From Alphaproteobacteria bacterium (GTDB lineage: Bacteria; Pseudomonadota; Alphaproteobacteria; UBA9219): a stretch of 40,766 bases of DNA. Every line of letters starts with the position of its first letter. Position 1 is the first letter of the stretch. Made by a program: the position numbers and the translations under genes. Positions 4,373-24,654 of this stretch are shown here, piece after piece. The stretch is from assembly GCA_031291435.1 (NCBI GenBank), contig JARLJC010000284.1, positions 1-40,766 of the forward strand, written 5' to 3'. The notes beneath the pieces were generated by a model. The model searched no databases and was not told the DNA's origin. It saw nothing but the letters and a program-made list of their open reading frames with translations.

Positions 4373-5050
4373 TCAGCCGACGCGGCTGCCTTGCGCCTTG
4401 CGTCTATAGGCCATGACGGCCATCGCCGTCAGCCCCAAAAGGAACAGGGGCAGCGTTGCAGGCAACGGAATGGCCGAGACGACGTAGGTTACAAAAACCC
4501 TCCCGAAGTCGTCGCCGAAATCGAGCGCGCTGAGGAAATAGACATCCGACGCCGAGTTGTTGACGATGGTGGTGGTGCCCTGCTTGGCCCCAAGGATATC
4601 GGCCGTCGCCAGAGTCAGCGGCGCCGAAGAACTGCCGTTAACGGTGCCATAGCTCCACGCCACACCGCCCAAGTTATTATGAGCCGGTTCGATATCGCCC
4701 GCCTCACCCCTGTAATGCGCGCCCGCTTGCGAATAATCATAGATACCGTAGGAAATCAGCTGCGTCTCGCCGAAATGCGCGCCGGGCGACAGCAGCGTAT
4801 AGGTAAAAGTAATTTTACTGTCGGGCGGCAGAAACCCATACCCCAGACCGAGGCCGTTGCCGCTGATGCTGGGATCGAGAAAATTCAAGGAGATGGGACT
4901 GGTATTGATGACGCCGGTTTGGCCGACGACAACCGTGCCCATGTCGTAATTTGTGCCGTTGAAATTAACGGTAACGGCGCCTGCGGGGCTGGAAACGACG
5001 CCTGCAGCAAGCAGCGAAACGATCAACGCTAAAGCGGGGACGGGTTTCAT
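4373..5050 (-). CDS. Secreted protein with PEP-CTERM-like (IPLPA) sorting tail
   Basis: This 225-residue protein has an N-terminal signal peptide (ALALIVSLLAAGVVSSPAGA) and a beta-rich body. It ends with a tripartite sorting signal: 'SAIPLPA', a hydrophobic helix 'TLPLFLLGLTAMAVMAY' and a basic end 'RRKAQGSR'. This matches VPLPA/PEP-CTERM signals recognised by exosortases, so it is a likely substrate of the exosortase at 9535. It is a paralogue of the protein at 23998: both have 'TVNF-G-N', 'GTV-(V/A)-(V/I)-GQ', 'LGYGF', 'SKITFTY' and 'VTY-VSAIPLP'. GAGG lies 7 bases before the ATG. It heads a minus-strand operon with the ATPase. The role is probably surface or matrix-associated; the ligand is unknown. 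Confidence 0.85.
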   Translation of the reverse strand: MKPVPALALIVSLLAAGVVSSPAGAVTVNFNGTNYDMGTVVVGQTGVINTSPISLNFLDPSISGNGLGLGYGFLPPDSKITFTYTLLSPGAHFGETQLISYGIYDYSQAGAHYRGEAGDIEPAHNNLGGVAWSYGTVNGSSSAPLTLATADILGAKQGTTTIVNNSASDVYFLSALDFGDDFGRVFVTYVVSAIPLPATLPLFLLGLTAMAVMAYRRKAQGSRVG

Positions 5051-5225
5051 AACAACCTCATTTTCATAAGAAAACTGACTTCGCCTTTATGTCTATAGGC
5101 GTATCAGAAGGAAGCCATGTGATCAATAAATAAGCTATGCGGATGATTATAATTCTTCCCCGGTATGGAAAACTTACTTATACTCCGGCTCTCTTTACGG
5201 GCATCAAGCTTCACATGAGGATGGC
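5051..5225. promoter_or_regulatory. Divergent intergenic region between substrate gene and export operon
   Basis: This 175-base, comparatively AT-rich gap separates two outward-facing operons of the exosortase locus and must hold both promoters. A plus-strand -10-like TATACT occurs at 5179-5184 and a TATAAT at 5148-5153, but neither has a good -35 at the right distance. TGAGG at 5216-5220 is the ribosome site for the downstream lipoprotein. No clear operator palindrome is seen. Confidence 0.4.
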
Positions 5226-5819
5226 ATGAAAAAGGCATTGAACTTGTTGGCTTTGTTGGCGGCGCTCGCCGGTTGCGCCCCGTCTACGTCCGTCACCTCC
5301 ACCGCAGCATCGCCGCCCGAAGCGCCCTTTACCATCATCGCCGGCGACGTTCTGCAGATCACCGTATGGAAGGAAGACGGGCTCGACCGCGAAGTTCTGG
5401 TCCTGCCCGACGGCAGCATTACCTTCCCCCTTATCGGCACGATTGAGGCGCAGGGCCAGACCCCCGCCGAGGTACGCGATACCGTCAAACTGAAACTCAA
5501 GAAACTGATTCCCGACGCCTCGGTCACGGTCACGGTCAAGGCCGCCCTCGGCCATACCGTCAATGTCATTGGGCAGGTCGGCAAACCCGGCGAAATCGTC
5601 ATCAGCCACCGCATGACCGCCATGCAGGCGCTAAGCCAGGCCGGCGGCCTTACCCCCTATGCCAGCGAAGGCAATATCATCGTCATCCGTCATGAAGACG
5701 GCAAGCAGACATCGATCCCGATCCCCTATGACGATATCATCGACGGCGACGATCTGGATAAAGACGTCATCCTTCAGCCCGGCGATGTCGTGGTCGTTCC
5801 CACCGCCGGTATCCTGTAA
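5226..5819 (+). CDS. Wza-like polysaccharide export lipoprotein (exosortase-associated)
   Basis: This outer-membrane polysaccharide export protein forms or contributes to the channel for exopolysaccharide. It is a lipoprotein, with lipobox 'LAGC' at C17 after a short hydrophobic signal. The polysaccharide-export domain spans about residues 35-108 (FTIIAGDVLQITVWKEDGL, LPDGSITFPLIG), followed by one SLBB domain at about 112-160 (VNVIGQVGKPGEI, ALSQAGGLTPYA). At 197 residues it is the short form typical of exosortase loci rather than the roughly 380-residue Wza. TGAGG precedes the ATG by 5 bases. It leads a run of five plus-strand genes ending with the exosortase. Confidence 0.93.
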   Translation: MKKALNLLALLAALAGCAPSTSVTSTAASPPEAPFTIIAGDVLQITVWKEDGLDREVLVLPDGSITFPLIGTIEAQGQTPAEVRDTVKLKLKKLIPDASVTVTVKAALGHTVNVIGQVGKPGEIVISHRMTAMQALSQAGGLTPYASEGNIIVIRHEDGKQTSIPIPYDDIIDGDDLDKDVILQPGDVVVVPTAGIL

Positions 5820-5822
5820 GCG

Positions 5823-7007
5823 ATGAGCATCCCCGCCGCTCTTCGCGCGTCGCGCACCAAACGTTCCGTCACCGCAGGGCTGGCCCTGTGCGCCCTCGCG
5901 GCCTCGCATGCGCATGCCGCCAATCTGACGCTGCAGGCGACCGGCACCGAGACTGGCTCATGGGCGTCCAATCCTTTAATGGCGATCTCTGGCGCCAGGC
6001 CTTTATGGGGTTCGACGACATCGCCGAGCCTGATCCTGCAGGATACCGCGCCCGATATGCAGCTGGGATTCAATGGCCGCATCGATGAGAATATTTTCAA
6101 TCAGGCGGCGTTCGATTCCACCGATGTGCATGCCCATGCCAGCCTCGCCAAAAAATCGGAACGCTGGGGCCTCAATCTCGGCGGCGGCACCGATTACGAC
6201 ACCACCCGCACCAGCGAATTGTCGAATTTCGGCTTGCCCGCGACCGTCGTCACCCGCCATCTGGGCCTCTCGCTGGCGCCGCAGGTTTCCTATGCCCCCA
6301 ATGCGCGCGATTCTCTGCGAATTTCGGGGTCGGCTTATTCCTCGCAATATGAAAGCAACCAGTTCGTCAATTACGATCTCTATACCCTGACGCCTTCTTT
6401 CAGCCGCCGCCTCGATCCTCTCAACTCCGCCGTCGTCTCGCTCGAAGCTCAACGTTACACAACCACCCGCAACACCCATGCGCGCGTCGACAGCCTCGGC
6501 CCCAGTATCGGCTGGCAGGGCAGCCTTTCGCCGCGCTTTAGCGCCAACGCTGCGATCGGCGCGCAGACCAGCCGCCAATATACCGACGACGTCGCCGTTG
6601 GCCCCTGGCAATGGTCGGCGATTTTCGACGCCGGATTAAACTATAAAGATGAACAGGATAGCGTCTCGTTAACCGCCCGGCGCGACCAGTCGCCTTACGG
6701 CAACGGCACCGACGGCTTACAAACGAATTTCGCCCTTACGGAGACCCACGCTTTAAATCCCCTGGTATCGCTTAATGTGGGGGCTCAATACCTGACCGCC
6801 GGCTATCAGGCATCGACGCTTTACAGTATCGAATCGCGCAGCGGAGGCAATGCGGGCGTGACGTGGCATGCCACCGAGACGCTCGATGTGACCGCTGGCT
6901 ATCAGTACAGTTATGAAGCGCTGACGGGCACCTCGCAGACCGTACAGGATCACACAGTCACGCTGGGTCTGGCTCTCCATCCCGGAACCTGGACCCTGTT
7001 GCAGTAA
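5823..7007 (+). CDS. Outer-membrane beta-barrel protein of the exopolysaccharide system
   Basis: This 394-residue exported protein has a signal peptide ending near 'SHAHA' (cleavage about residue 33). The rest is a series of alternating amphipathic strands rich in Tyr, Ser and Thr, for example 'LSLAPQVSYAPNARDSLRISGSAY' cut by short turns, which is the pattern of a large outer-membrane barrel. Exosortase-type export clusters often carry such a barrel next to the Wza-like lipoprotein (TIGR03016/EpsL-like). The likely role is an outer-membrane pore for the polymer. It starts 3 bases after the preceding stop. The barrel call is good; the family name is inference. Confidence 0.82.
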   Translation: MSIPAALRASRTKRSVTAGLALCALAASHAHAANLTLQATGTETGSWASNPLMAISGARPLWGSTTSPSLILQDTAPDMQLGFNGRIDENIFNQAAFDSTDVHAHASLAKKSERWGLNLGGGTDYDTTRTSELSNFGLPATVVTRHLGLSLAPQVSYAPNARDSLRISGSAYSSQYESNQFVNYDLYTLTPSFSRRLDPLNSAVVSLEAQRYTTTRNTHARVDSLGPSIGWQGSLSPRFSANAAIGAQTSRQYTDDVAVGPWQWSAIFDAGLNYKDEQDSVSLTARRDQSPYGNGTDGLQTNFALTETHALNPLVSLNVGAQYLTAGYQASTLYSIESRSGGNAGVTWHATETLDVTAGYQYSYEALTGTSQTVQDHTVTLGLALHPGTWTLLQ

Positions 7008-7020
7008 GATCGAGGAAAAA

Positions 7021-8694
7021 ATGGAAGAACTCGGCCTCCGCGATTACGTCACCGTCCTGCGGCGCTGGCACAAATTGTTCGCCTTTACGGTGCTGGTCAT
7101 TCTGGCCGCCTCGCTGACGGTGGCGTTGCGCTGGTCGAATTACCGTTCGACCGCGACGGTGCAGATCGAGCAGCCGGAAATTTCCAGCAATGTCACCGCG
7201 CCCGCGGGCGGCGATGGCGATGCCGCGCGGGCCGCCGCCGACCAGCATCTCGGCGAATTGCAGCAGAAGGTGGAATCGACATCCTCATTGATCGATCTCA
7301 TCACCAAGCTCGATCTTTACCCGGGCGCCCGCAAACACAGGCCCATCGCCGACGTCGCCGGCGGCATGCGCAAAAAGATCAAAGTCGAATTCATCGACAA
7401 CCCGCTTAAATCGACCGCCACCAGCCCGGCCATCGCCTTCAGCATCAGTTTCGATTACAACGACCCGTTGCTGGCCCAGCAGGCGACCGACGAGCTGGTG
7501 ACGCGCTTCCTCGACGAGGATTTAAAGGAACGCCACGCCCAGGCCCAGACCACTTCCGATTTCCTCGCGGCCCAGATCACGGCGATGGAAGAATCGATGT
7601 CGGAACAGGAAAAGAAAATCGCCGATTTTGAGAAACAGCACGGCGTCACCCGTCCCGACGAACTCGCCTTCAACCAGCAGGCCGCCGCCAATATCGGCCT
7701 CAACCTGCAGAACCTGTCGAGCCAGATATCCGGCAACGAAGGCACCATCGGCTCGCTGCGCGGCCAGATGGCCAGCATCGACCCCTATGCCCGCGTGATG
7801 GCCGACGGACAGATTCTGACCACCCCGGCGGTGCAGCTGAAAGCCCTGCAATCGCAATATGCGACGCTGACCGCCCAGTACGGCGCCGATTATCCCGACG
7901 TCATCAAGGTCAAACATCAGATCGAGGCGCTGCAGGCGCAAACCGGCGCGCGTTCGGGCACCGCCGATCTGCATGCGCAGATCACCGATACGCGCACCAA
8001 TCTGGCCGCCGCCGAAAAAACCTATGGCCCCGAACATCCCGATGTCGTGGCGCTGAAGGACAAATTGCAGAAACTGGAAGACGCCATGGTGCGCCATCCC
8101 AGCGGCCGCCTGCCGGGCACAAACGGCGTGGTCGGCGACGCCGACAATCCCGCTTATCTGCAGGTCGCCTCGCAATTGCAGGCGGCGGAAGACCAGCACA
8201 AAATCCTCCTCGATCAGCAGGGCGAGCTGCAGAAGCAGCAGCAGATTTATCAGAACGCCATCATCGCCAATCCCGAAGCCGAAAAGGAAATGGCTTCCCT
8301 GTCGCGCGATTATGACAATGCCCAACTGCGTTATCGCGAACTGAAGGAAAAAAAGATGGCCGCCGACATGGATTTGCAGATGCAGCAGGACCGCAAGGGC
8401 CAGCGCCTGTCGGTCATCAACCCGCCCGAATTGCCGGGCGGCACCCATCCGGCGCGCCTGATTCTGGCGCTGGGCGGAATGCTGTTTTCCCTGCTGGGCG
8501 GATTGACCGCCGTGGCCGCCGCCCAGATGTGGCACCAGAGCGTGATCGGATCGCGCCAGCTGGCGATGATCGCGGGCGCGGCGCCGCTGGTCTGCATTCC
8601 CTATATCATGACCGAACAAGAGCGTTCGCGCGCCCTGATCCGCAATCCTTTGATGCTATGGAACGCTTTCGTGCAGCGTTTGGGCCTGACATAA
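7021..8694 (+). CDS. Wzz/GumC-like polysaccharide co-polymerase (chain-length determinant)
   Basis: This 557-residue inner-membrane protein sets polymer length and couples polymerase to export. It has an N-terminal Wzz domain with transmembrane helix 1 at about 17-37, a long periplasmic coiled-coil region (residues 170-440, rich in Gln and Glu) and helix 2 at about 478-500, preceded by a Pro-rich 'NPPELPGGTHP'. Two copies of a motif, 'YGADYPDVIKVKHQIEAL' and 'YGPEHPDVVALKDKLQKL', mark an internal repeat in the coiled coil. CGAGGA lies upstream of the ATG. The tyrosine kinase domain is supplied by the next gene, 13 bases downstream. Confidence 0.93.
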   Translation: MEELGLRDYVTVLRRWHKLFAFTVLVILAASLTVALRWSNYRSTATVQIEQPEISSNVTAPAGGDGDAARAAADQHLGELQQKVESTSSLIDLITKLDLYPGARKHRPIADVAGGMRKKIKVEFIDNPLKSTATSPAIAFSISFDYNDPLLAQQATDELVTRFLDEDLKERHAQAQTTSDFLAAQITAMEESMSEQEKKIADFEKQHGVTRPDELAFNQQAAANIGLNLQNLSSQISGNEGTIGSLRGQMASIDPYARVMADGQILTTPAVQLKALQSQYATLTAQYGADYPDVIKVKHQIEALQAQTGARSGTADLHAQITDTRTNLAAAEKTYGPEHPDVVALKDKLQKLEDAMVRHPSGRLPGTNGVVGDADNPAYLQVASQLQAAEDQHKILLDQQGELQKQQQIYQNAIIANPEAEKEMASLSRDYDNAQLRYRELKEKKMAADMDLQMQQDRKGQRLSVINPPELPGGTHPARLILALGGMLFSLLGGLTAVAAAQMWHQSVIGSRQLAMIAGAAPLVCIPYIMTEQERSRALIRNPLMLWNAFVQRLGLT

Positions 8695-8707
8695 CCGGAG
8701 CGACCTA

Positions 8708-9526
8708 ATGGACAGACTTGAAAAAGCCATCGAGAAAGCCCGGGCCGAGCGCGCCACGGTTAATCCGTCGCTGATGAACCCGTCGCTTTCAGGCGCCGCC
8801 GCCCTTGCGCGCGGCGCGGCGCCCGCCTTCAACGGCAGATCGACGCCGGTTTTCGCGCCGCCCTCGCCGTCGGGAGACGAGCCCGATGAAGCGCAGATGG
8901 AACGGAACCGCGTCGTCGCCCATCATACCCGCAGCCCCGAAGCCGATATTTACCGCCAGCTCCGCACGCAGGTTCTGCACATCATGAACAAGGAGGGCTG
9001 GCGTTCGCTCGCCATCACCAGCCCCAATTACGGCGACGGCAAAACCACGGTGGCGCTCAATCTCGGCATCAGCATCGCGCTCGACCTGAAACAGACCGTG
9101 ATGCTGGTCGATCTCGATCTCCGCAAGCCGGCGATGCATCGCTATCTGGGACTGAATCCCACCGTCGGCCTCACCGATTATCTGGTCAAGGGCGTGCCTT
9201 TGACCGATTGCCTGACGCGGCCGCCTTTCGAACGGCTCAACACCCTGCCCGCCGGTTCGGCGCTCGACAATTCCTCGGAACTGCTGGCCTCGCCGCGCAT
9301 GATCGCTTTGGCGCATGAGCTGAAAACACGTTACCCCGACCGCCTCATCATTTACGACATGCCGCCGGTTCTCAATCAGGACGATCCCATCGCCTTCCTG
9401 CCGCAGGTCGATGCCGTGCTGGTAGTGGTGCGCGACGGCGTAACGCGCAGCGACGATCTCAAACGCTGCCTCGCCAATCTTGCCGCGGCCAACGTCATCG
9501 GCACCGTGCTGAATGTCTGCCAATAG
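8708..9526 (+). CDS. CpsD/CapB-like tyrosine autokinase (exosortase-associated)
   Basis: This cytoplasmic BY-kinase partners the Wzz-like protein and controls polymer assembly by phosphorylation. The 272-residue protein starts with 'MDRLEKAIEKARAER', typical of the exosortase-linked subgroup. It has Walker A near 105-114 (SPNYGDGKTT, K112), Walker A' 'LVDLDLRKP' near 134-141 and Walker B 'IIYDMPP' near 214-220. BY-kinases usually end in a tyrosine cluster; this one ends 'ANVIGTVLNVCQ' with no C-terminal tyrosine, so autophosphorylation, if any, must occur elsewhere. It sits between the co-polymerase and the exosortase in one operon. Confidence 0.9.
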   Translation: MDRLEKAIEKARAERATVNPSLMNPSLSGAAALARGAAPAFNGRSTPVFAPPSPSGDEPDEAQMERNRVVAHHTRSPEADIYRQLRTQVLHIMNKEGWRSLAITSPNYGDGKTTVALNLGISIALDLKQTVMLVDLDLRKPAMHRYLGLNPTVGLTDYLVKGVPLTDCLTRPPFERLNTLPAGSALDNSSELLASPRMIALAHELKTRYPDRLIIYDMPPVLNQDDPIAFLPQVDAVLVVVRDGVTRSDDLKRCLANLAAANVIGTVLNVCQ

Positions 9527-9534
9527 GCCTTGGC

Positions 9535-11073
9535 ATGCGTGACCTTCGCGGTTCCGCTCTCTTCTTCGATATGACAATGGGTGCCGCGCTGGCGGCGCTC
9601 ACGGTCTGGCTCTTTGCGGCGACCTTCGCCAGCCTGTTCGCGGCATGGCAAACCCCGGAATACAGCTATGGCTATCTTGTGCCGCTGGTTTGCCTGGGCT
9701 GGGGCTGTGCCCTCTATCGCGAGAGGAAACCCGCTTTACGCCCCGCCCTCAGCGGCCTCGCGCTGGTAGGTTTCGCGGTCGGCATGCATCTCTTCGGCGA
9801 TCTCGCCGCCAATAACTGGCTCGATGAATATGCCATCGTTGTTGCGGCCGCGGGTTTTGTCGCCACATTGATGGGGTGGCAGGCATTGGGCGCGCTCTTC
9901 CCGGCGGTGTTTTTTCTGTCCTTCGCGGTGCCGCTGCCGCCCATGACGCAGGCCAGCCTCACCGCCGGCATGCAGCTTCTTTCCTCGACCCTCAGCGTGG
10001 CGGGGTTACATCTGCTCGGCGTGCCGGTGTTTCAGGAAGGCAACATCATCGATCTAGGATCCTATAAACTGCAGGTGGCCGAGGCCTGCAGCGGGTTGCG
10101 CTATTTGTTCCCTTTCATGGGCTTCGGCTATCTGTTCGCGTTTCTGTTCGAAAAAAACAATCTGAAGCGTGTTCTTCTTATGCTTGCCACCATTCCCATC
10201 GCCATCGTCATGAACGCGCTGCGCATCGTCATTATCGGCGTCAGCGTCGATATGTGGGGAATCGCAATGGCCGAAGGCCTGGTGCATCAGATCGAAGGCT
10301 GGGTGGTGTTTGTCGGCTGCATCGGTTTTCTATTCGCGGTGTGGTGGGCATTGTCGTTCGTCCAGACGCGCGTGACAGCATCGGAAAAAATAACTTCGGC
10401 CGCCTCCATATCCGCGCCGCATATCACCCGCGCCCTTGTCCTGCTTGTGGTTCTTATGGCGCTGGCTTGCGGTGGCGCGAAATTGTTGCTGGCCGACCGT
10501 GCCGCCGCCGTTCCCGACCGCAGCCCGCTGATCGATTTTCCGCTCCGTCTCGGCGACTGGCGCGGACAGATCGGCGATCTGCCGTCCGACCAGCTCGCCG
10601 CGCTCAAGCTCAGCGATTATTTCATGGGCGATTACCGCAGGGATAACGACGCCGAAGCGATTAATTTCTATATCGCTTATTACGCCAATCAGCGCCGCGA
10701 TGCCGCCCCCCATTCACCTCTGGTATGCATACCGGGAGCGGGCTGGGAAATCACCGCGCTGCGATCCGATTATAGAGTCAGGGATGCGAGCGGTAAAATC
10801 CTGCTCACGGTCAACCGCGCGCTGATCAAAAACGGCGACAGGCAGGCTCTGGTCTATTTCTGGTATGACGAACGCGGACGCGATCTGACAACGGCGGCGC
10901 AGCGGAAATGGTATCTGGCCAGGGATTCGCTGGTGCGCGGACGCAGCGACGGCGCTCTGGTCCGCGTGGTGATCGGTATCGGCAACGGCCTGTCGCTGGG
11001 TGACGCGGACCGCAAACTGGCCGAATTCCTCAGTTTCGCTCTGCCGGAACTCGGGCGTTACGTTCCCGATTAA
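9535..11073 (+). CDS. Exosortase with fused C-terminal EpsI domain
   Basis: Exosortases are integral-membrane cysteine transpeptidase-like enzymes that recognise PEP-CTERM-type tails. The first about 275 residues form the multi-spanning exosortase domain with the catalytic set: C185 in 'EACSGLR', R230 in 'NALR' and H251 in 'GLVHQIEGW'. After a further membrane helix (about 296-313) comes an EpsI domain (PLIDFPLRLGDW, HSPLVCIPGAGWEI, YFWYDERGR) to residue 512. The neighbours are those of XrtA systems, but the IPLPA-type tails of the two local substrates resemble the VPLPA signals assigned to XrtD. I therefore leave the subtype open. It is the last gene of the export operon. Confidence 0.95.
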   Translation: MRDLRGSALFFDMTMGAALAALTVWLFAATFASLFAAWQTPEYSYGYLVPLVCLGWGCALYRERKPALRPALSGLALVGFAVGMHLFGDLAANNWLDEYAIVVAAAGFVATLMGWQALGALFPAVFFLSFAVPLPPMTQASLTAGMQLLSSTLSVAGLHLLGVPVFQEGNIIDLGSYKLQVAEACSGLRYLFPFMGFGYLFAFLFEKNNLKRVLLMLATIPIAIVMNALRIVIIGVSVDMWGIAMAEGLVHQIEGWVVFVGCIGFLFAVWWALSFVQTRVTASEKITSAASISAPHITRALVLLVVLMALACGGAKLLLADRAAAVPDRSPLIDFPLRLGDWRGQIGDLPSDQLAALKLSDYFMGDYRRDNDAEAINFYIAYYANQRRDAAPHSPLVCIPGAGWEITALRSDYRVRDASGKILLTVNRALIKNGDRQALVYFWYDERGRDLTTAAQRKWYLARDSLVRGRSDGALVRVVIGIGNGLSLGDADRKLAEFLSFALPELGRYVPD

Positions 11074-11082
11074 GGCCCCCAA

Positions 11083-12579
11083 CTAACGCTTACGCCACGG
11101 CCCCGGAATTTTGGCCAGCACTTCACCGAAAAGCTCGGGCGTTACAAGACGCACCGCCAGCAGATAAAGCGGGCCGCCGAGGGCAAGCGGAATCGCTATA
11201 TGCACAAGCTCCATCCCGTCGAAAACCGGCAGACGCCCCACAAGATAGGAACCGCCGATAGTCGGCCCCGCCAGCCCCAGCGGCACATAAAAACAGGACA
11301 GGATGCGCCGCCAGCCCACTCCCGCTTTGCGAAAGACGATCGTCGTCAGAAACACGGGATGCGAAAGATAATAGGCCGCGACGCCCAGCGCCACGCCGGT
11401 CGCCGAGGCCAGCAGCCCGCCCGCGCCGACAAAGATGAAAAAGAAGGGCATGGTGATAAGCTGATAGGTGAAAGATTTACTGAACTGGCCGCGCGATTCA
11501 AGAAACGCGCCTGCCGCCCATGCGACGGAATCGATCGAAAGCCCGAGGCTGAGAATTTGCACGAGCGGTATCGACGCGTTCCAGCGTTCGCCGAACAGCA
11601 GATGCAAAAGGGGCTCCGCCACGGCGGCCTGCATGAGGCAGAGCGGCGCCGTCAAGAGCCCGAGCAATTTGCCGGTCTTGAGCGCGGCGTTGCATTGGCG
11701 CGTGGGGTCGCCGCTCATCGCCACCAAAGCGGGCCGCAGCACCCCCATGAAATTTCCGGCCAGCAGCATCACCGGCTGCGCCGCCAGTTTAAAGGCGAAG
11801 TAATAGATGCCGACCACGGGCGCCGGCGCGATCAGCCCCAGCGTCACATAATCGCCTTGTCCAATGGACGTATTGACGATGCTGACGCCAAACGCCGCGA
11901 CGCCGCGCGACATCATCCGCCGCCATCCCCTGGCGCGGCGGCGCGGGCGCAGATGCATCGGCGCGACGCGCCAGAAAACAATTGCGCGGATCAGGGCCGC
12001 CAGCGGCAAAGGCAGCACGAAACTGAGCGCGCCCATGCCATAGAGGGCCAGCGCCACCGTCAATGTCTGGCTGGCGATCAGCTCGATCGAACTGTAAACC
12101 GCGAGGAATTTGAACCGCAGCAGCGATTTCAGCTGCGCCGTTGGCACGGTGCCAAGCGCGCTGAGCGGCAAACTCAGCGCAACTACCCACACCAGTTTCG
12201 TCACTTCGGGATTGTGATAAAGCCGCGCGCCGATCGGCGCATAGACCGCCATCGCCACCGCCACCGTGGTAGCGAGGCCGAGGCTGAGGGCGAAAGCCTG
12301 GGTTGCCCACATATGCATGCGCGGGCGGCGTTGCTGAAAAACCTGTTCGATGCCGAAGCCGGTCAGGACCGAGAAAAACCCGGATATCGTATAGGCAAGC
12401 CCGACCACGCCGAAATCCTCGGGCAGCAGAACGCGCGCCAGCACCAGCTGCGAAATAAGGTTCGACAAAGCCCGTCCGCCGATATTAAGCGCCGTCGTCC
12501 ACATAATGCCCGACGCCGATTTCTTGCCGATGGAATCCACCGGCAGATCGCTCTCTAAAGGGGGCTGGGCCTCGGCCAT
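11083..12579 (-). CDS. Wzx-like oligosaccharide flippase
   Basis: This 498-residue protein of the polysaccharide-transport (MATE-like) family would move lipid-linked repeat units across the inner membrane. It is almost entirely hydrophobic helices, about 12-14, beginning after a short cytoplasmic tail with 'GIMWTTALNIGGRALSNLISQLVLARVLLPEDFGVVGLAYTI' split across the first two helices; the segment before 'LLPEDFG' is characteristic of this family. AAGGA lies before the ATG. It is transcribed alone on the minus strand, convergent with the exosortase gene (9-base gap) and divergent from the glycosyltransferase pair. The substrate is inferred to be the local exopolysaccharide unit. Confidence 0.93.
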   Translation of the reverse strand: MAEAQPPLESDLPVDSIGKKSASGIMWTTALNIGGRALSNLISQLVLARVLLPEDFGVVGLAYTISGFFSVLTGFGIEQVFQQRRPRMHMWATQAFALSLGLATTVAVAMAVYAPIGARLYHNPEVTKLVWVVALSLPLSALGTVPTAQLKSLLRFKFLAVYSSIELIASQTLTVALALYGMGALSFVLPLPLAALIRAIVFWRVAPMHLRPRRRARGWRRMMSRGVAAFGVSIVNTSIGQGDYVTLGLIAPAPVVGIYYFAFKLAAQPVMLLAGNFMGVLRPALVAMSGDPTRQCNAALKTGKLLGLLTAPLCLMQAAVAEPLLHLLFGERWNASIPLVQILSLGLSIDSVAWAAGAFLESRGQFSKSFTYQLITMPFFFIFVGAGGLLASATGVALGVAAYYLSHPVFLTTIVFRKAGVGWRRILSCFYVPLGLAGPTIGGSYLVGRLPVFDGMELVHIAIPLALGGPLYLLAVRLVTPELFGEVLAKIPGPWRKR

Positions 12580-12758
12580 GTCATCCTTGTTGAATTTTTA
12601 TGGGCAAACACGGCGTTATCCGCACCAACGCCGCCGGGGTGCGGCGAGTTATAACATGCGGTTCGTAAAGGCAAAACAAGTTCCACCCAGATTAATCTTG
12701 TACCAAATCGGACATTTGCTAAGAACCTAGTCGGAATGCATAAAAGAGGAGCCCGCCG
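12580..12758. promoter_or_regulatory. Divergent promoter region between flippase and glycosyltransferases
   Basis: This 179-base spacer separates the flippase gene from the outward-facing glycosyltransferase pair. On the minus strand a candidate TTGTTT then, 17 bases on, TGTTAT lies around 12651-12680. A 7-base inverted repeat (CCGCACC/GGTGCGG, 12620-12644) lies between it and the flippase start and could form a small leader hairpin. AGGAG before 12759 is the ribosome site of the plus-strand gene. The promoter call is weak. Confidence 0.35.
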
Positions 12759-15383: not shown

Positions 15384-16570
15384 CGCGACAGCCCTTTCTC
15401 TAAAATCGGCAAGAGCCGCTCGATATAAAGTTGCGTCGACATCGGCGCGGCCCAATAGGATTTATAAGCTTCCTGCGACATCCGCAAAGCCGTTTCCGCA
15501 TTCGACAAAGCCGCGCAAGCCGCGCCCAGTTGGGTCAGATCCGCCATATCGACGACAAACCCGTTAACACCGTTCGCAATCAGGGTGGCGGCGCCTGCCC
15601 GGTCGCTCACGATCACGGGTGTGCCTTGAGACAAAGCCTCCGGAACGACCAGACCAAAGGCCTCGAGATAAATGCTGGGCAGAATGAGGGCCCGCGATTT
15701 TCGGATTTCGACAGCCACCTCTTCCGAATCCGCCCAGCCTTTAAAAATAACTTTCGGATATTTTGCCTGCAGGGAAGAGCGCAGCGGCCCGTCGCCGATC
15801 ACCGTCAGCGGATACCGGTTTCCGGCGGCTTCGAGAAGCTCAACGATGCCTTTTTCTTCCCACAGCCTCCCGACGAATAGAAAAGATCCACCCGCCTCGG
15901 TTCGCGGCCCGTTATCGCGCACGGCGACGGGGTTCGGAACAACATGAATGGGGACGTCCGGCGCGAGGCGCGATTCTATCCTTTCTTTAAGCAACGCGCT
16001 CGGTGCGACAAACGCGCAGGCGCCCTGCTTGAGGCCGGAGTAAAAATCCATGACCCCGCTCTTGGCCAGCTTGAACGCCTTGTGCAGATAGGTCTGCTTG
16101 TCGCAGTTGCAGAGAACGCATGCGGCGGAAAAAGGCTCCAGCCCGCAAGGCTTGCCGGTCTGAAAATTGTAGAAATAGCCCGTCGGGCACGCCCATCCGG
16201 CATCATGCGCGGTGACGACGTAAGACAATCCGCTTTTCCGTAAGACCGGGGCTATCGATGAAGACAGGCCCATAGATAGGGAATGAATGTGAACCACAGT
16301 CTCTTTGCGGTCGAAACGCGCCAGATAGCGGCCCAGCTCCTGCGCGGCTTTCCGGTTCCATATTTCTCCCAGCCGGTCGCGAGGTCTGTCTGGGGGCCAT
16401 ATATAAAAAGCATCTTCGATATAGGCATCGAATTGCGGCGCGGCGGGGCCTGAGGCTGCAAAAAGATGAACTTTGATCCCTGCTGCCGCCAGCCCCGCCG
16501 CCTGGGCGAGAAGAACGGAACTGACGCCGCCGGTATGCCTCGCGCTATCGGCAACAAGAATGCATCTCAT
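15380..16570 (-). CDS. Family 4 glycosyltransferase
   Basis: This 396-residue retaining glycosyltransferase of the GT4/GT-B class has 'RHTGGVSSVLLAQAAGLAAAG' region at the N terminus (shown in part), a nucleotide-sugar half beginning near 'FLFVGRLWEEKGI', and the E-x7-E motif 'EAFGLVVPEALSQGTPV'. An unusual cluster of cysteines (ACVLCNCDKQTY) sits in the N-terminal half and could bind metal. The start at 16570 gives the standard 'MRCILVADS' beginning; an upstream extension would run into the preceding gene. ATGA overlap with the GT25 gene indicates coupling. Confidence 0.92.
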   Translation of the reverse strand: MRCILVADSARHTGGVSSVLLAQAAGLAAAGIKVHLFAASGPAAPQFDAYIEDAFYIWPPDRPRDRLGEIWNRKAAQELGRYLARFDRKETVVHIHSLSMGLSSSIAPVLRKSGLSYVVTAHDAGWACPTGYFYNFQTGKPCGLEPFSAACVLCNCDKQTYLHKAFKLAKSGVMDFYSGLKQGACAFVAPSALLKERIESRLAPDVPIHVVPNPVAVRDNGPRTEAGGSFLFVGRLWEEKGIVELLEAAGNRYPLTVIGDGPLRSSLQAKYPKVIFKGWADSEEVAVEIRKSRALILPSIYLEAFGLVVPEALSQGTPVIVSDRAGAATLIANGVNGFVVDMADLTQLGAACAALSNAETALRMSQEAYKSYWAAPMSTQLYIERLLPILEKGLSR

Positions 16571-16583
16571 GGCAATTCTGCTT

Positions 16584-17822
16584 TCAACATGGGGCACCCT
16601 GAGGCTGTTGCCGTTCAGCGGGCAGGGATTTGTCACGCCCTAACAGCACCCCATACAGAAACCACAAAATCGCCGCCGTTTTCGAACTATAAAACGACGT
16701 GCCGCTGATAAAAAGAATGCTCAGCGCATACACCGCCAGCATCAGGCGGAAACGCCGCGCGCGCGCGTCTTTCAAGACCGGCCGCGCGAACAGTATCCAA
16801 AGAAGGATACAGAGCGGCAGCCCGAAATGCTCGAGCGTATAAGCCACCCCCATATCGGCAAGACCAGCCAGAGTTCCCACGCCCATCACTTGCGCGAACG
16901 ACAGATCCAGCGTCGCCAGCCCGGAGCGCATCAGCCGCCCGGTCAGGTTATCGTCATCGGGATTGCCGAGGCCCAAATGCGTGAACAGCAATAGCCCGCC
17001 CACCGCCACAAGCGGCAGGGCAAAAATGACCCCGCGCCGCGCCGCCACCGGCACGAAGCGCAGGAACAACAGAAAAAACACCAGCAAACTGGCGAATCGC
17101 GAGTCGCACGCCACGATCAGCACAAGAGCGGCAATAAAATGCGCCGCCGCCCTCCACTTTTCCTTGGCGTCGAAGCTGAGCGCCCACAGGCACACGATAA
17201 TGGCGTAATTGCCCATCGATACCGGTTCGAGAAACACCGAGGAAATGCGCCGGTCGCCGAGAAACGGCAAAAGGTTGCGCCCCTGTGGGCGGAATCCGCT
17301 GGTAAAAGTATTATCAGGCACCCAGGTGGTGCCGGAAGACATCAGCCCGCGCGCCGTGTAATAGCGCATGATGTTGACGTAATGCAGATAACTGTCGGAA
17401 AGGAAATATTCCGCCGCCGCGAAAACCATCACGATGCCGGTCGCCAGCCATACCAGTTTATCCGCCGCCTCGCGGTCGGGCTGCATCCGCCCCAGCGCGT
17501 AACAAACCAGAATGATGGCGAGGTTGCGCGGGCCGTCGAGATCGACATCGCCGCGCACCGCACAGGCCGCCATAAAATAGGTCAGCATGAAAAGCGCCAG
17601 CGCCATTTCATGAAACCGGCATGAGGGCGCCGCGCGCAGCGTCGCCCAGCCCAGCAGGCCCGCTTCGCAGACGGCGACTATGGCGTTCGAAACCCCGAAC
17701 GCGTTAGCGTTGACGATACATAAAAAGAATTGATAGCAGAGGAATCCGAGAATAACCGGCGTCGCCGCAGGCCAGCGCACGCGCATCCGCGCCGCGCGTG
17801 GGGACAATGGGCTTGCCGTCAT
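16584..17822 (-). CDS. Wzy/O-antigen-ligase-like membrane protein (putative polymerase)
   Basis: This 412-residue integral membrane protein has about 10-12 predicted helices and a larger periplasmic loop (about 165-200, with 'YTARGLMSSGTTWVPDNTF' and 'GFRPQGRNL'). This is the layout of O-antigen ligase/Wzy polymerases, which join repeat units in the periplasm. Its ATG overlaps the stop of the GH5 gene (ATGA), and the GT4 gene follows 13 bases after its own stop. Sequence motifs in this family are weak, so the call rests on topology and position in the operon next to Wzx, Wzz and glycosyltransferases. Confidence 0.8.
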   Translation of the reverse strand: MTASPLSPRAARMRVRWPAATPVILGFLCYQFFLCIVNANAFGVSNAIVAVCEAGLLGWATLRAAPSCRFHEMALALFMLTYFMAACAVRGDVDLDGPRNLAIILVCYALGRMQPDREAADKLVWLATGIVMVFAAAEYFLSDSYLHYVNIMRYYTARGLMSSGTTWVPDNTFTSGFRPQGRNLLPFLGDRRISSVFLEPVSMGNYAIIVCLWALSFDAKEKWRAAAHFIAALVLIVACDSRFASLLVFFLLFLRFVPVAARRGVIFALPLVAVGGLLLFTHLGLGNPDDDNLTGRLMRSGLATLDLSFAQVMGVGTLAGLADMGVAYTLEHFGLPLCILLWILFARPVLKDARARRFRLMLAVYALSILFISGTSFYSSKTAAILWFLYGVLLGRDKSLPAERQQPQGAPC

Positions 17823-18817
17823 TCCTTGCCGCTCATCGCCTGCTCCAGAATCTCAACCTGCGGATAGCGCGCCGGGTCGGGCGGATAGATATTGAACATA
17901 TAGGTTCCGAACCACGCCCCCGCCGCCCAGTATGTCCAGCCATACCAGACATCCTTGTTGGCCGCCATATAGGCCAGCGTCCCGCGCAGGGCTTCAAGGC
18001 AAACCGGGTCTTTTGACGCGCCGAATTCGCCGAGGAACGCGCGGTTTCCCGTTTTATGCAGCCACGCCGTGGCGGCGGCCAGCGCTTTTTCACCGACATC
18101 CGCGCTGACGCATTCGGGATGCGTACCCGACGAATCCTTGTCGAAATACTGATGCATCTCGAAAACAAAATTATGCGCGGGGTCTTTGATGGTTTGCAGC
18201 GCGGCGGCGTTGCCGCTGGAAATCCAGCTATGCGCCCCGCTCCAGTCGGTTCCCGGCACGAGGATAAGCTGCTGCGCCCCGGTTTTGCGGATGGCGTCGA
18301 TGCCCGCTTGCGCGATGGCGGCCCATACCGCCGCGTCTATTTTATGCGGCTCGTTCATCAGGCCGAACGCGACATTGGCGTTGCCTTTTTCATGTTCGGC
18401 GAGGCGCGTCCATAAATCTGCGAAAGCGGCGACCGGAACATCCTCCGAACCTATATTCTCGCCGCGATAGCCGCCGTAATTATGAACGTCGAGCAGAATG
18501 GTGACTCCGCGCGACGCCGCCGCGGCCACTACGGCGTCGAGACGCGCCAGTTCATTCGCATCGAGCGGCTGGCCGAGCACCGGCTGCATGCGTTCCCACA
18601 AAAACGGCATGCGCACGATATTGGCGCCGATGGCGGCATAGGCGTCGATGTCGGCGGCGGTCGGCCAGATGTAATTCTTGCCCGCAATGCCGGGAAGGGC
18701 GCCGCTGTTGAATTCCGCGCCCGCAATATTGACCCCGTGAAAATGCGTGGATGCCGCCTGCGCCGGAACGGCAAGGAGCAGACCAAGCAGAGCGGCCCAT
18801 GCGGTGTGCTTTTTCAT
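17819..18817 (-). CDS. Secreted GH5-family glycoside hydrolase (cellulase-like)
   Basis: This 332-residue enzyme has a clear signal peptide (TAWAALLGLLLAVPAQA) and a GH5 catalytic domain. The start 'FHGVNIAGAEF', 'IVRMPFLWERMQP', 'VTILLDVHNYGGY', the acid/base Glu in 'GLMNEPH' and the nucleophile Glu in 'FLGEFGAS' are all present, and 'WYGWTYWAAG' supplies the conserved aromatic near the end. GH5 members of this kind cut beta-1,4-glucans. In an exopolysaccharide operon such an enzyme usually trims or clears polymer in the periplasm, as BcsZ does for cellulose. It overlaps the Wzy-like gene by 4 bases. The location suggests the polymer has beta-glucan-like links. Confidence 0.93.
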   Translation of the reverse strand: MKKHTAWAALLGLLLAVPAQAASTHFHGVNIAGAEFNSGALPGIAGKNYIWPTAADIDAYAAIGANIVRMPFLWERMQPVLGQPLDANELARLDAVVAAAASRGVTILLDVHNYGGYRGENIGSEDVPVAAFADLWTRLAEHEKGNANVAFGLMNEPHKIDAAVWAAIAQAGIDAIRKTGAQQLILVPGTDWSGAHSWISSGNAAALQTIKDPAHNFVFEMHQYFDKDSSGTHPECVSADVGEKALAAATAWLHKTGNRAFLGEFGASKDPVCLEALRGTLAYMAANKDVWYGWTYWAAGAWFGTYMFNIYPPDPARYPQVEILEQAMSGKE

Positions 18818-19939: not shown

Positions 19940-19952
19940 GCGGCGGACCCGT

Positions 19953-20717: not shown

Positions 20718-20739
20718 AGGATCTCTCCCTGGGGGTTCC

Positions 20740-20794
20740 TTGACTCTATTGCTGCGCTGCAATACGAAATAGATCGAAATGGCGTCCGAGTCAA
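20740..20794. promoter_or_regulatory. Overlapping opposed promoters with GANTC sites in both -35 boxes
   Basis: In the 185-base spacer between the wecG-like gene and prsT, the plus strand has TTGACT (20740-20745), 17 bases, then TACGAA (20763-20768), pointing to prsT. The minus strand has TTGACT (20794-20789), 17 bases, then TATTTC (20771-20766), pointing to the wecG-like gene. The -10 boxes overlap. Each -35 runs into GACTC/GAGTC, a GANTC site. The -35 boxes are good and the -10 boxes are weak. Confidence 0.45.
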
Positions 20795-20902
20795 GTTAAG
20801 CCCTCATAAAAAGACCATAATGGAAATGCGTATGGGGCCTTTGCAGCCTGTCAGCTATGCTGCGCGGCAAGTTCTCTTTATTGAAGCGAAAGTTTTCGCC
20901 TT

Positions 20903-23302
20903 ATGACCCTGTTACGCAAGCCCCTTTTCCTGCTGATCGCCGCGTCGCTTCTGATGCTGACTGCGGGATGCAGCCCACAACAGAAGGAAGCCTATTACCT
21001 CAAGCGCGGCGCCGCAGCTTTCGACCATGAGGATTACGCCCGCGCCCGCGTCGAATTCAAGAATGCGGCGCAGGCCGTCCCCACCGCCGCTGAGCCGCGC
21101 TATCGGCTCGGCCTGGTCGACGAGGCCGAGGGCGATTTGCGTAACGCCTTCGCCAATTTCACGGCCGCCGAGCAGCAGGATAAAAATTTCCATCCCGCCA
21201 TTCTGAAAGTCGCGCAATATTATATGGCCGCCGAACAATATGACCAGACGCAGCAGCGCATCAATGCGGTGCTGGCGCAGGCCCCCGGCGACGCCGAGGC
21301 GCACGGGTTGCTGGCGGCCCTCTTGCTCCGCGAGAAAAAATATGACGATGCGGAAAAGGAAGCTCTTGCGGCGCTGGCCGCCGATGCGGGCAATGTCACG
21401 GCGGTCTCGGCCCTGACCGGCCTTTATGCGGCCCAGAACCAGTTCGATAAGGCCGAGGCCACCATCGATGACGGCATCGCGCGGCATCCGCGCAATCTGG
21501 GTTTGATGATGGTGCGCGTCATGCTTGCCGAACGCATGGATGATTTGCCCAAAATCGCCGCCGCCTATGAAGCGATCTTCAAACTCAAGCCCGACGAACC
21601 CCAGTTCCGCGTCGATCTTGCCGCCATCTATGCCAAGGCGGGCAAGCTCGACGAAGCCGAAGCGGTGCTGCGCGCAGGCGTGGCAGCCTTGCCGCAGGAT
21701 TGGGACATGAAGCACCGGCTGGTGCTGTTCCTCGGCGACAAACGCGGCGTCGAGCCGGCGGAAAACGAAATTCATGCCCTGCAACAGGCCTATCCCCAAA
21801 ACAACGCCCCTTCTTTCTGGCTGGCCGAACTTTACACGGCGCATGGCGACAGCGACCGGGCGGTGGCGTTGCTGCAGCAGATCGTGGCGCATGACGACGC
21901 CGGCGCCAACGGGCTTGAGGCGCGCACCATGCTGGCGCGCCTCAATATCGCCGAAGGCAACCGCGCGATGGCGCAGAAACTGGCCGCCAGCGTTCTGGAG
22001 CGCGATCCCGGCAATTCTGCGGCCTTATTCGTGCGCGCCAGCCTGGCCTTCGATACCGGCGCCTATCAAAGCGCGGTTTCCGATCTGCGCAGCATTCTGC
22101 GCGACAAGCCGGACGATCAGGACGCGCTCAATCTTCTGGCCGAAACTTTCCTGCGGCAAGGGCATCTCGATCTCGCCATCGATATGATGAAAAAACGCGC
22201 CGATCTCAACCCGACGGATTTCCATGCCCGCGTACGCCTGGCGCAGATGCTGCATGCAAGCGGCGACAACCGGCAGGCGATGGATATCGTCGCCGGGGTA
22301 ACCAAGGCCGCGCCCGATTACGCGCCGGGCTGGGAAAGCGCCGCGCGCATCGCCATCGAAAGCAAGGACTGGCTGCCCGCGCAGGCGGCGGTCGCGGCGC
22401 TGGACAAACTGCCCGATCAGCATTTGACCGCGCTGTTCCTGCGCGGACAGGTTGCGCAGGATAACGGCAAAGACGAAGAAGCCAGCGCCCTGTATAAAGA
22501 AGTCATCGATGCGGATCCCGCTTCGGCGCTGGCCGAGCATGCGCTGGCCGCCTATGTCGACATCGCACATAAACTGAACCGGATGCCGGAGGCGACTTCC
22601 TATATTGCCGGCCTCAAAACCGACAGCCCTTATGTCGCGACGATATTGGGGCGCTGCTATGCCGCCACCGGGCATATCGCCGACAGCACCGCCGCCTTCG
22701 ACAAAGCGATCAAAGCGGGCGCGCCTTTCGCCGAACCCTATCTGGGTCGCGCCCAGCTTTATATCGGCGATCATCGGCCCGACGCGGCGATCGAAGTTCT
22801 GAAAAAATCCGCCGCCGCGGCGCCGGGCGATTTCCGCGCGCCTGTGATGGAGGCGGAACTTCTCAATCGGGCCGGACAAGACGCACAAGCTGTCGCCGTT
22901 TATGAGGATATCCTCGCGCGCGATCCGGGTTTCGACCCCGCCGCCAACAATATGGCCGAGATTATCGCCGACAATCCGGCCAGCGATGCCGCCGATCTCG
23001 ATAAAGCGCGGCAGGCGGTGGAACGTTTCGCGGGCTCGGCCAATCCGCTACTGCTCGACACGCTGGCCTGGGTTTATGCCCGGCAGGGCAAGACCGCGCT
23101 GGCGCAAACGGTAATGGAGCGCGCGCTGGCCCAGGCCAGAAACGGCGCGCAGACTCTGCCGCCGCAGGTGCATTACCATTTCGGCGCGATCCTGATGCAG
23201 GAAGGCAAGACCGAGGCGGCCAGAGCCGAGCTGCGGCAGGCGACGGTCGCGGGATCCTCCTATCCCGGACGCGACGAGGCGCAAAGGATGCTCGCGCCAT
23301 AA
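20903..23302 (+). CDS. prsT: Exosortase-system TPR-repeat lipoprotein PrsT
   Basis: This 799-residue lipoprotein (lipobox 'LTAGC' at C23) is built almost wholly of tetratricopeptide repeats, more than 15 copies of a 34-residue pattern such as 'AEPRYRLGLVDEAEGDLRNAFANF'-like helices and 'FAEPYLGRAQLYIGDHRPDAAIEVL'-like helices. PrsT proteins occur beside XrtA exosortases and exopolysaccharide genes and are thought to scaffold the envelope machinery; a defined activity is not known. The start has no strong ribosome site but gives a textbook lipoprotein signal. Its stop overlaps the PAP2 gene start (TAATG). Confidence 0.92.
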   Translation: MTLLRKPLFLLIAASLLMLTAGCSPQQKEAYYLKRGAAAFDHEDYARARVEFKNAAQAVPTAAEPRYRLGLVDEAEGDLRNAFANFTAAEQQDKNFHPAILKVAQYYMAAEQYDQTQQRINAVLAQAPGDAEAHGLLAALLLREKKYDDAEKEALAALAADAGNVTAVSALTGLYAAQNQFDKAEATIDDGIARHPRNLGLMMVRVMLAERMDDLPKIAAAYEAIFKLKPDEPQFRVDLAAIYAKAGKLDEAEAVLRAGVAALPQDWDMKHRLVLFLGDKRGVEPAENEIHALQQAYPQNNAPSFWLAELYTAHGDSDRAVALLQQIVAHDDAGANGLEARTMLARLNIAEGNRAMAQKLAASVLERDPGNSAALFVRASLAFDTGAYQSAVSDLRSILRDKPDDQDALNLLAETFLRQGHLDLAIDMMKKRADLNPTDFHARVRLAQMLHASGDNRQAMDIVAGVTKAAPDYAPGWESAARIAIESKDWLPAQAAVAALDKLPDQHLTALFLRGQVAQDNGKDEEASALYKEVIDADPASALAEHALAAYVDIAHKLNRMPEATSYIAGLKTDSPYVATILGRCYAATGHIADSTAAFDKAIKAGAPFAEPYLGRAQLYIGDHRPDAAIEVLKKSAAAAPGDFRAPVMEAELLNRAGQDAQAVAVYEDILARDPGFDPAANNMAEIIADNPASDAADLDKARQAVERFAGSANPLLLDTLAWVYARQGKTALAQTVMERALAQARNGAQTLPPQVHYHFGAILMQEGKTEAARAELRQATVAGSSYPGRDEAQRMLAP

Positions 23303-23898
23303 TGATCGGCTTCCTGCTGCGCACGGTTACCGATTTCGGCGACAGCGCCCTTACCGGCACGCTGAGTTTGCTGCTGGCTGCACATCTGCTGGCCGCGAAA
23401 GAGCGGCGCGCGGCGGCGGCGGCGGCGCTGGCCTTTACCCTGACCGGCGGCGTGGTTGCGCTGGGCAAACTGATGATCTACAGCCGCTGCCCGGGAACGG
23501 CTCTCTTTCTCAACCTGCAATCGCCGAGCGGCCATAGCGCGATGTCGGTGGCGGTTTACGGCACCGCCGCCGCGATTATCGCTTCGGATCTCACCGGATG
23601 GCGGCGGGCTTTGCCCTTCGCCGTCGCCTTGCCTCTGGTCGGGCTGATCGCCGTGTCGCGCGTACTGGTGGGCGCGCATACGGTAGTCGATGTCACGGTC
23701 GGAACGTCCATCGGGGCGCTGGCCGGGCTGGGCCTGTGGGCCGTCTTGTTACGGGGGCATGCGGTTCATTTCCGATGGCAAATTTTCACGATTCAGGCTT
23801 TTGTTCTTCTGATGCTTCTGCATGGGTTGCATTTTCCTGCGGAATCAATGCTTCGGCGCTTTTCAATCCTTATTCGCGGGCTTTTACCAGTTTGTTGA
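23302..23898 (+). CDS. PAP2-family membrane phosphatase
   Basis: This 198-residue protein has about five membrane helices and the PAP2 signature in order: a degenerate 'KLMIYSRC', 'SPSGHSAMS' (phosphatase motif 2) and 'SRVLVGAHTVVDV' (motif 3 with catalytic His and Asp). Such enzymes dephosphorylate lipid pyrophosphates; next to exopolysaccharide genes the likely substrate is undecaprenyl pyrophosphate released by polymerisation. The ATG overlaps the prsT stop by one base (TAATG), so they are translated together. Motif 1 has lost its usual Arg-Pro end (YSRC), as in some divergent members. Confidence 0.88.
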   Translation: MIGFLLRTVTDFGDSALTGTLSLLLAAHLLAAKERRAAAAAALAFTLTGGVVALGKLMIYSRCPGTALFLNLQSPSGHSAMSVAVYGTAAAIIASDLTGWRRALPFAVALPLVGLIAVSRVLVGAHTVVDVTVGTSIGALAGLGLWAVLLRGHAVHFRWQIFTIQAFVLLMLLHGLHFPAESMLRRFSILIRGLLPVC

Positions 23899-23997
23899 TT
23901 TCCGCCGCCACCACAGCCGCCCTCTTCCGTATTGCTCCCTTAGCCGCCACCTGTTACGAGTCGCGGTGTCTGCTCCCTTTGTGCCCGTTGTGCTGTC

Positions 23998-24654
23998 ATG
24001 AAAACGCCAACTCTTTCGACGCTTTCCCTCGCTGCGATCGTAACGCTCGCCACCGCCTCTGCGGCGCAGGCGAATACGGTCAACTTCTCAGGCAACAACT
24101 GGGATTTCGGTACCGTGGCTATCGGCCAGAGCGGCACCGTCACCACCAACCCCAACAGCGATTTCGTCGTCGACAGCAGCAACAACCCGATGACTTCATA
24201 CGATCTGGGGTACGGATTCATTCCCGCGGGCAGCAAAATTACTTTTACTTACGTGATCACGCCGCCGCTGACCGGTTCGGTTGAAGCTAACGGCAATTAT
24301 TCGTTCGTCGCGGGCAATTCGCTGTTCACGATCACGAGCTCGAACGGCGCCGCGACGGAATATAAGACCAACCTGATCAATCACGCGACGACGACGATCG
24401 CGCCCCCTGCGGCGCTGCCGGTTCTGACCAGCGCCAATATCTCAAGCGGCATCGGCAAGACCGTGATTACGAATCTCTCGAATTCGGTGGTGGGGTTCAG
24501 CAGCTATTTCCTGTCGCTGATCGCGCCGGGCAGCCATCTGTCGGTGACCTATAACGTCTCGGCGATTCCGCTGCCGGAAAGCGTCGTCCTGTTCGCGTCG
24601 GCCCTTATGGCGCTGGCCGGTTTCTCGCTCTATCGCCGCCGCCATCAAATCTAG
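23998..24654 (+). CDS. Secreted protein with PEP-CTERM-like (IPLPE) sorting tail
   Basis: This 218-residue paralogue of the protein at 4373 has a signal peptide ending 'ASAAQA' and a beta-rich, Asn/Ser/Thr-rich body. It closes with the tripartite sorting tail 'SAIPLPE', hydrophobic 'SVVLFASALMALAGFSLY' and basic 'RRRHQI'. Shared landmarks with the first paralogue are 'TVNFSG', 'GTVAIGQSG', 'LGYGF', 'SKITFTY' and 'VTYNVSAIPLP'. It is therefore a second candidate exosortase substrate. It lies 99 bases after the PAP2 gene with no clear ribosome site, and ends at a strong terminator, closing the exopolysaccharide locus. Confidence 0.85.
   Translation: MKTPTLSTLSLAAIVTLATASAAQANTVNFSGNNWDFGTVAIGQSGTVTTNPNSDFVVDSSNNPMTSYDLGYGFIPAGSKITFTYVITPPLTGSVEANGNYSFVAGNSLFTITSSNGAATEYKTNLINHATTTIAPPAALPVLTSANISSGIGKTVITNLSNSVVGFSSYFLSLIAPGSHLSVTYNVSAIPLPESVVLFASALMALAGFSLYRRRHQI

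What the first reader, a model, noticed from the sequence alone, without database searches (positions are those of the whole stretch)
4373..24654. Self-contained exosortase/exopolysaccharide locus with a paralogous pair of substrates near its two ends
Two secreted proteins (4373-5050 and 23998-24654) share body motifs (TVNF-G-N, GTV, GQ-G, LGYGF, SKITFTY) and an almost identical pre-tail 'VTY-VSAIPLP', followed by different hydrophobic helices and basic ends. One lies near each end of the cluster that contains the exosortase, Wza/Wzz/CpsD, Wzx, Wzy-like and PrsT genes. Seen: shared motifs and tails. Known: PEP-CTERM/VPLPA tails are exosortase signals. Inferred: the pair are dedicated clients, perhaps two versions of one anchor linked to the polymer.
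Basis: partly seen in the sequence, partly recalled or inferred. Interest (0 to 1): 0.65.

Follow-up and report, generated by a model that had tools for sequence, protein, structure and literature searches.

The report
Exosortase locus with two dedicated clients
A sugar-polymer (slime) export locus of an uncultured alphaproteobacterium carries its own protein-sorting enzyme (exosortase XrtD) and two related secreted proteins with matching sorting tails; they belong to a small undescribed client family kept at two fixed places in this locus in relatives, which would make the system a simple one in which to find out what exosortases do with their clients.

Summary
The two proteins are true paralogues outside signal and tail (body-only alignment z about 20 against shuffles). 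The locus exosortase (9535-11073) passes the XrtD cut-off (467 vs 400 bits) and is the only exosortase in the genome. A lineage tail profile finds exactly three convincing tails genome-wide: these two, and a third protein elsewhere with an unrelated choice-of-anchor-C body. So the pair are the main clients, not the only ones.

In relatives the same body family sits in the same two slots: between the TIGR03015 ATPase and wza, and downstream of PrsT. A body-only profile found 18 proteins; all 18 carry the tail. Within the taxonomic family, tails occur in all 9 XrtD-positive genomes and in 3 of 13 without XrtD, and match PrsT presence exactly (12 of 12 vs 0 of 10). A congener with the export core but no PrsT or XrtD has no gene in the wza slot. 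One distant genome has XrtD and a single tail protein, adjacent to PrsT.

This is a low-client member of the known exosortase/EPS systems with an undescribed client family. Linkage to the polymer is plausible but untested.

The parts
4373..5050 (-). Client 1 (SUB2): signal peptide, ~165-residue beta-rich body, IPLP tail with TM helix and RRK end; divergent from wza, next to TIGR03015 ATPase
   Evidence: (PF07589 21.0 bits, cut-off 20.7; TIGR03370 19.7, cut-off 25.35)
23998..24654 (+). Client 2 (SUB1): paralogue of client 1, downstream of PrsT-PAP2, followed by a GC stem and T run at about 24676-24698
9535..11073 (+). Exosortase XrtD (EpsH domain plus fused EpsI/DUF3485 domain); Cys, Arg and His motifs ACSGLRY, NALRIV, LVHQIEGW present
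   Evidence: (TIGR04152 467.5 bits, cut-off 400), (only copy in genome)
3424..4338 (-). XrtA/PEP-CTERM-system-type AAA ATPase (TIGR03015-like)
   Evidence: 281.7 bits, cut-off 324.5; neighbour of SUB2 slot in relatives
2960..3532 (-). Small secreted Cys-rich protein, conserved next to the ATPase
   Evidence: no NCBIfam match
5226..5819 (+). Wza-type polysaccharide export protein
   Evidence: TIGR03027 139 bits, cut-off 180
5823..7007 (+). Putative outer-membrane beta-barrel protein, conserved in the export module
7021..8694 (+). Wzz-type chain-length determinant
   Evidence: TIGR03007 187 bits, cut-off 279
8708..9526 (+). CpsD-type tyrosine autokinase
   Evidence: TIGR03018 175 bits, cut-off 231
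11083..12579 (-). Wzx-type flippase
12759..14588 (+). Two GT2 glycosyltransferases (12759-13664 and 13665-14588)
   Evidence: first; second
14613..16636 (-). GT25 and GT4 glycosyltransferases
16584..17822 (-). Wzy-like membrane protein (by position and hydropathy; no significant family match)
17819..18817 (-). GH5 glycoside hydrolase, secreted
   Evidence: PF00150 190 bits
18818..20762 (-). GT4 and WecG/TagA/CpsF glycosyltransferases
20903..23302 (+). PrsT-type TPR lipoprotein
   Evidence: TIGR02917 226 bits, cut-off 312; co-occurs exactly with tails in the family
23302..23898 (+). PAP2 phosphatase between PrsT and client 2
   Evidence: PF01569 46 bits

Best explanation
The two proteins are clients of the locus exosortase XrtD. 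Proposed path: (1) Sec export and signal-peptide removal; (2) the IPLP-TM-basic tail holds the protein in the inner membrane; (3) XrtD recognises the tail, cuts near IPLP with its Cys/Arg/His centre and joins the new C-terminus to an acceptor; (4) the protein leaves with, or becomes attached to, the exopolysaccharide made and exported by the same locus, where its small beta-rich body helps hold polymer to the cell surface. Shown here: paralogy, tail architecture, XrtD identity, genome-wide client count, two conserved slots in the EPS export module, co-occurrence with PrsT and XrtD, and body never found without tail. Inferred from studied exosortase systems: steps 1-4. The acceptor and the outer-membrane route were not settled in the papers read.
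For: XrtD 467.5 bits, over cut-off, single copy in genome. Paralogy in the body. Three tails genome-wide with a wide gap to noise: 2e-14, 3e-14, 2e-11, then 0.06. ATPase/wza slot occupied in the window, G002, G003 (a short 136-aa tail protein) and near the ATPase in G009; PrsT slot occupied in the window, G003 (three in tandem), G009, G010, G020 and G142. 18 of 18 body-only hits carry the tail. In the taxonomic family, tails in 9/9 XrtD-positive and 3/13 XrtD-negative genomes (p 4.6e-4) and in 12/12 PrsT-positive and 0/10 PrsT-negative genomes (p 1.5e-6), not corrected for relatedness. G007 keeps cys-ATPase<>wza-OMP-wzz-kinase but has no PrsT, XrtD, tail or gene in the slot. G142 has XrtD, PrsT and exactly one tail protein in one locus. 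Precedent: pepA next to prsT shifts EPS from soluble to bound form in Aquincola (PMC9850573); CrtB is needed for adhesion to polysaccharide in Nostoc (PMC12188702).
Against: A third tail protein with unrelated body lies elsewhere in the genome. In most congeners XrtD is not in the EPS module. Three genomes with PrsT and tails show no exosortase; one of them (G018) is 96% complete. The tail of client 2 scores poorly with the general VPLPA model (10.2 bits) and is not matched by PF07589. No data on cleavage, export or acceptor.
Confidence: 0.8

Rival explanations
1. The pair are ordinary members of a broad VPLPA-CTERM client set whose position in the locus is incidental; XrtD serves any tail protein and the pair have no special link to this polymer.
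For: Other tail proteins with other bodies exist in this genome and in relatives (16 of the 34 convincing tails counted have no body-family match); in 7 of the 14 tail-bearing genomes no tail gene was found beside the export module, though several of these assemblies are fragmented.
Against: The same body family recurs in the same two slots in several genomes, the slot is empty in a module without XrtD and PrsT, and genomes here have only 1-5 tails, unlike G073 with about 24.
Confidence: 0.2
2. The two proteins are structural or assembly factors of the export machine (periplasmic or outer-membrane parts) that are merely membrane-anchored by their tails, without exosortase cleavage.
For: They sit beside wza, the ATPase and PrsT in several genomes; beta-rich low-confidence model.
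Against: The body was never found without the tail, and the export core exists without them in G007.
Confidence: 0.1
3. The two copies are two versions for two polymers or conditions: an old duplication with each copy tied to its slot (compatible with the best explanation).
For: On the gene tree the slot labels need only one change; window client 1 is nearest to the G002 and G009 copies next to the ATPase.
Against: The split is weakly supported (53/78; 56% of bootstrap trees), several branches are long, and ten rows lie in neither slot.
Confidence: 0.3

Closest known systems
XrtD / VPLPA-CTERM system (NCBIfam TIGR04152 and TIGR03370)
   Same: Exosortase over the curated cut-off; clients end in [VI]PLP, TM helix, basic cluster
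   Different: Only three convincing clients here, two of them one paralogous family placed inside the EPS locus; tails score below the general VPLPA cut-off
XrtA / PEP-CTERM EPS locus (EpsH, PrsT, TIGR03015, TIGR03007, TIGR03018, TIGR03027; PMC1569441)
   Same: Homologous ATPase, Wzz, kinase, Wza and PrsT genes around the exosortase
   Different: All these fall below the XrtA equivalog cut-offs; exosortase is XrtD; no PEP motif; no convincing sigma-54 -24/-12 site upstream of either client
Flocculation protein PepA of Aquincola tertiaricarbonis (NF033554; PMC9850573)
   Same: Secreted exosortase-tail protein encoded next to prsT; floc and EPS binding role
   Different: Body unrelated (profile-profile probability 0.1%); weak PepA matches come mostly from the tail
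Dedicated sorting systems with one target next to the enzyme (rhombosortase/GlyGly-CTERM, PMC3237569)
   Same: Few targets, targets beside the system genes
   Different: Exosortase instead of rhomboid protease; one to five clients; clients tied to the EPS/PrsT module rather than always to the enzyme

Membership tests
Exosortase XrtD (TIGR04152) | Score over curated cut-off 400 bits, fused EpsI domain | tested here: met
   467.5 bits; EpsH and DUF3485/EpsI domains
Exosortase XrtD (TIGR04152) | Conserved Cys, Arg, His | tested here: met
   Motifs ACSGLRY (from residue 184), NALRIV (227), LVHQIEGW (249)
Exosortase XrtD (TIGR04152) | Cleaves and transfers VPLPA-tailed proteins | not testable with these tools
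   Needs biochemistry
VPLPA-CTERM client (TIGR03370) | Score over cut-off 25.35 bits | tested here: not met
   Client 1 19.7 bits; client 2 10.2 bits; 14 of 20 family members match the model at E 0.01 or better, two shown over cut-off
PEP-CTERM motif (PF07589) | Score over gathering cut-off 20.7 | tested here: inconclusive
   Client 1 21.0 bits, met; client 2 no match
Exosortase client (general architecture) | N-terminal signal peptide, short Pro motif, TM helix, basic C-terminus | tested here: met
   Read from sequence and tail profile; the profile was built from these tails among others
XrtA/PEP-CTERM EPS locus | Equivalog scores for XrtA-type accessory genes | tested here: not met
   ATPase 281.7/324.5, Wzz 187/279, kinase 175/231, Wza 139/180, PrsT 226/312 bits
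PepA flocculation protein (NF033554) | Score over 80 bits and homologous body | tested here: not met
   Family members whose scores were shown reach 9.7-22 bits; body-to-body hhalign probability 0.1%
Any described family for the client body | Pfam, NCBIfam or PDB match of the body | tested here: not met
   No reliable match; models are low confidence (pLDDT 52-56)

The most novel reading that the evidence does not exclude
XrtD here serves a private client family whose only role is to be joined to the polymer made by the same locus, so that the exosortase acceptor is the polysaccharide (or its lipid-linked repeat) and the two paralogues are two alternative polymer anchors; in G142 the system is reduced to one enzyme and one client.
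Probability: 0.25. Interest if true: 0.75.

Novelty: new member of a known kind. Interest (0 to 1): 0.42.

Why it matters
Species with exosortases often carry twenty or more clients that share little but the tail (PMC3237569), which makes it hard to find what the enzyme attaches them to. A lineage with one to five clients, many of them beside the polysaccharide export genes, and one genome (G142) with exactly one client in the exosortase locus, gives a small system in which the acceptor and the client role could be worked out. It also adds an undescribed client family and links PrsT presence tightly to the presence of tails.

Tried and rejected
PepA homology: 13 of 20 family members match NF033554 at E 0.01 or better, but body-to-body profile comparison is null, so rejected. 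Recent replacement of XrtD in this genome: congeners' XrtDs are as far from each other (34-42%) as from this one, and the tree does not resolve it, so not claimed. Structure: two AlphaFold jobs with three-sequence alignments reached pLDDT 52-56; Foldseek found nothing at E 0.001. PDB by sequence: no reliable match. Sigma-54 sites upstream of the clients: best 7 of 11 consensus positions, not convincing. Viral contigs: no relatives.

Full report
Observation. The two proteins are real. The one at 4373-5050 lies on the minus strand (225 aa); the one at 23998-24654 on the plus strand (218 aa). BLASTP gives 37% identity over the full length, E 7e-26. Without signal and tail, the body alignment scores 175 against a shuffle mean of 38.6 (sd 6.7, maximum 68 of 2000).

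Exosortase and locus. The gene at 9535-11073 is XrtD: 467.5 bits to TIGR04152 (cut-off 400), with fused EpsI domain. It is the only exosortase over cut-off in the genome (one further 24-bit match on contig C22 is below the Pfam cut-off and was not followed up). The surrounding Wza, Wzz, kinase, ATPase and PrsT genes are homologues of the XrtA/PEP-CTERM set but below those equivalog cut-offs. Wzx, several glycosyltransferases, GH5, PAP2 and a Wzy-like membrane protein complete the locus.

Other clients in the genome. The general VPLPA and PEP-CTERM models find client 1 and, weakly, others. The full-length pair profile and a lineage tail profile both find a third protein at G000:C92, 250 aa, ending ISAVPLPPTFLLFAAGLAGLGFFAFYRRRAM. 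Its body matches choice-of-anchor C (TIGR04362, 99 bits, cut-off 120). The next best tail match has E 0.06. So there are three convincing clients, two of them this pair. The assembly is a 373-contig genome with 6.5% estimated contamination, so the third contig's membership is not certain.

Relatives: slots. Neighbourhoods were fetched and read. The block cys-ATPase<>wza-OMP-wzz-kinase, often followed by PrsT, is conserved (wza, wzz and ATPase 43-73% identical). The first client slot lies between ATPase and wza: window, G002 (the ends of contigs C14 and C27 overlap by about 150 bases, so one gene), G003 (a 136-aa tail protein), and a copy 1.6 kb beyond the ATPase in G009. The second slot lies downstream of PrsT: window (after PAP2), G003 (three tandem copies), G009 (two tail proteins, one with the family body), G010, G020, and G142 (another taxonomic family). 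The G010 and G020 slot proteins were not found by the body-only profile, so they may be other clients or very divergent copies. In seven of fourteen tail-bearing genomes no tail gene was seen beside the module; several of those assemblies are fragmented.

Relatives: co-occurrence. XrtD over cut-off occurs in 13 of the 144 genomes searched, the window's own among them. In the window's taxonomic family (22 genomes compared), convincing tails occur in 9 of 9 XrtD-positive and 3 of 13 XrtD-negative genomes, and in 12 of 12 PrsT-positive and 0 of 10 PrsT-negative genomes (Fisher p 4.6e-4 and 1.5e-6, not corrected for relatedness). G007 has the export core and ATPase but no PrsT, exosortase or tail, and only 168 bases between wza and ATPase. 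A body-only profile found 17 proteins in 10 of 24 family genomes and 1 in G142, and nothing else in the 385 class genomes sampled; all 18 carry the tail. Most of these sequences were also used to build the profile, so the informative part is that no tail-less relative appeared.

How it probably works. From published work on other exosortases, client proteins are exported by Sec, held by the tail, processed by the exosortase and end up outside, stabilising contact between cell and polysaccharide (PMC1569441; PMC9850573; PMC12188702). Everything after 'tail plus exosortase plus EPS locus' is inferred for this genome. The acceptor is not known in the papers read.

Membership and novelty. The exosortase is a member of XrtD. 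The clients have the exosortase-client architecture but fall below the general VPLPA cut-off. They are not PepA: the bodies do not align. The body matches no Pfam, NCBIfam or PDB entry reliably. The 'dedicated system' idea, in which few targets lie beside the sorting genes, was described for rhombosortase (PMC3237569). I therefore call this a new member of a known kind with an undescribed client family.

Two versions of one anchor. On the gene tree the two slot labels need one change, the least possible, but support is weak (53/78; 56% of bootstrap trees). An old duplication with one copy per slot is possible, not shown.

Noticed in passing
G000:C92:29743-30495 (L039:1498-2250, minus): Third tail-bearing protein of the genome: choice-of-anchor-C-like body with VPLP tail, between a fabF-like and an mrp-like gene.
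   Followed up: yes
window 2960-3532 (minus): Small secreted protein with repeated Cys motifs, conserved next to the TIGR03015-type ATPase in G002, G003, G006, G007, G009 and G142; no NCBIfam match.
   Followed up: partly
window 23302-23898 and L072:6085-6690: A PAP2 phosphatase lies between PrsT and client 2 here, and a 43% identical one lies about 1.4 kb from XrtD in G009; it may belong to the system.
   Followed up: no
G018 (L173, L174, L175): A 96% complete relative with PrsT and two tail proteins but no detectable exosortase.
   Followed up: partly
L071:9166-10911 (G003:C6): Three tandem copies of the client family downstream of PrsT, 41-50% identical in the body.
   Followed up: partly
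G000:C22:7350-7691: A 24-bit sub-threshold match to the exosortase domain in a 632-aa frame; probably another membrane protein.
   Followed up: no
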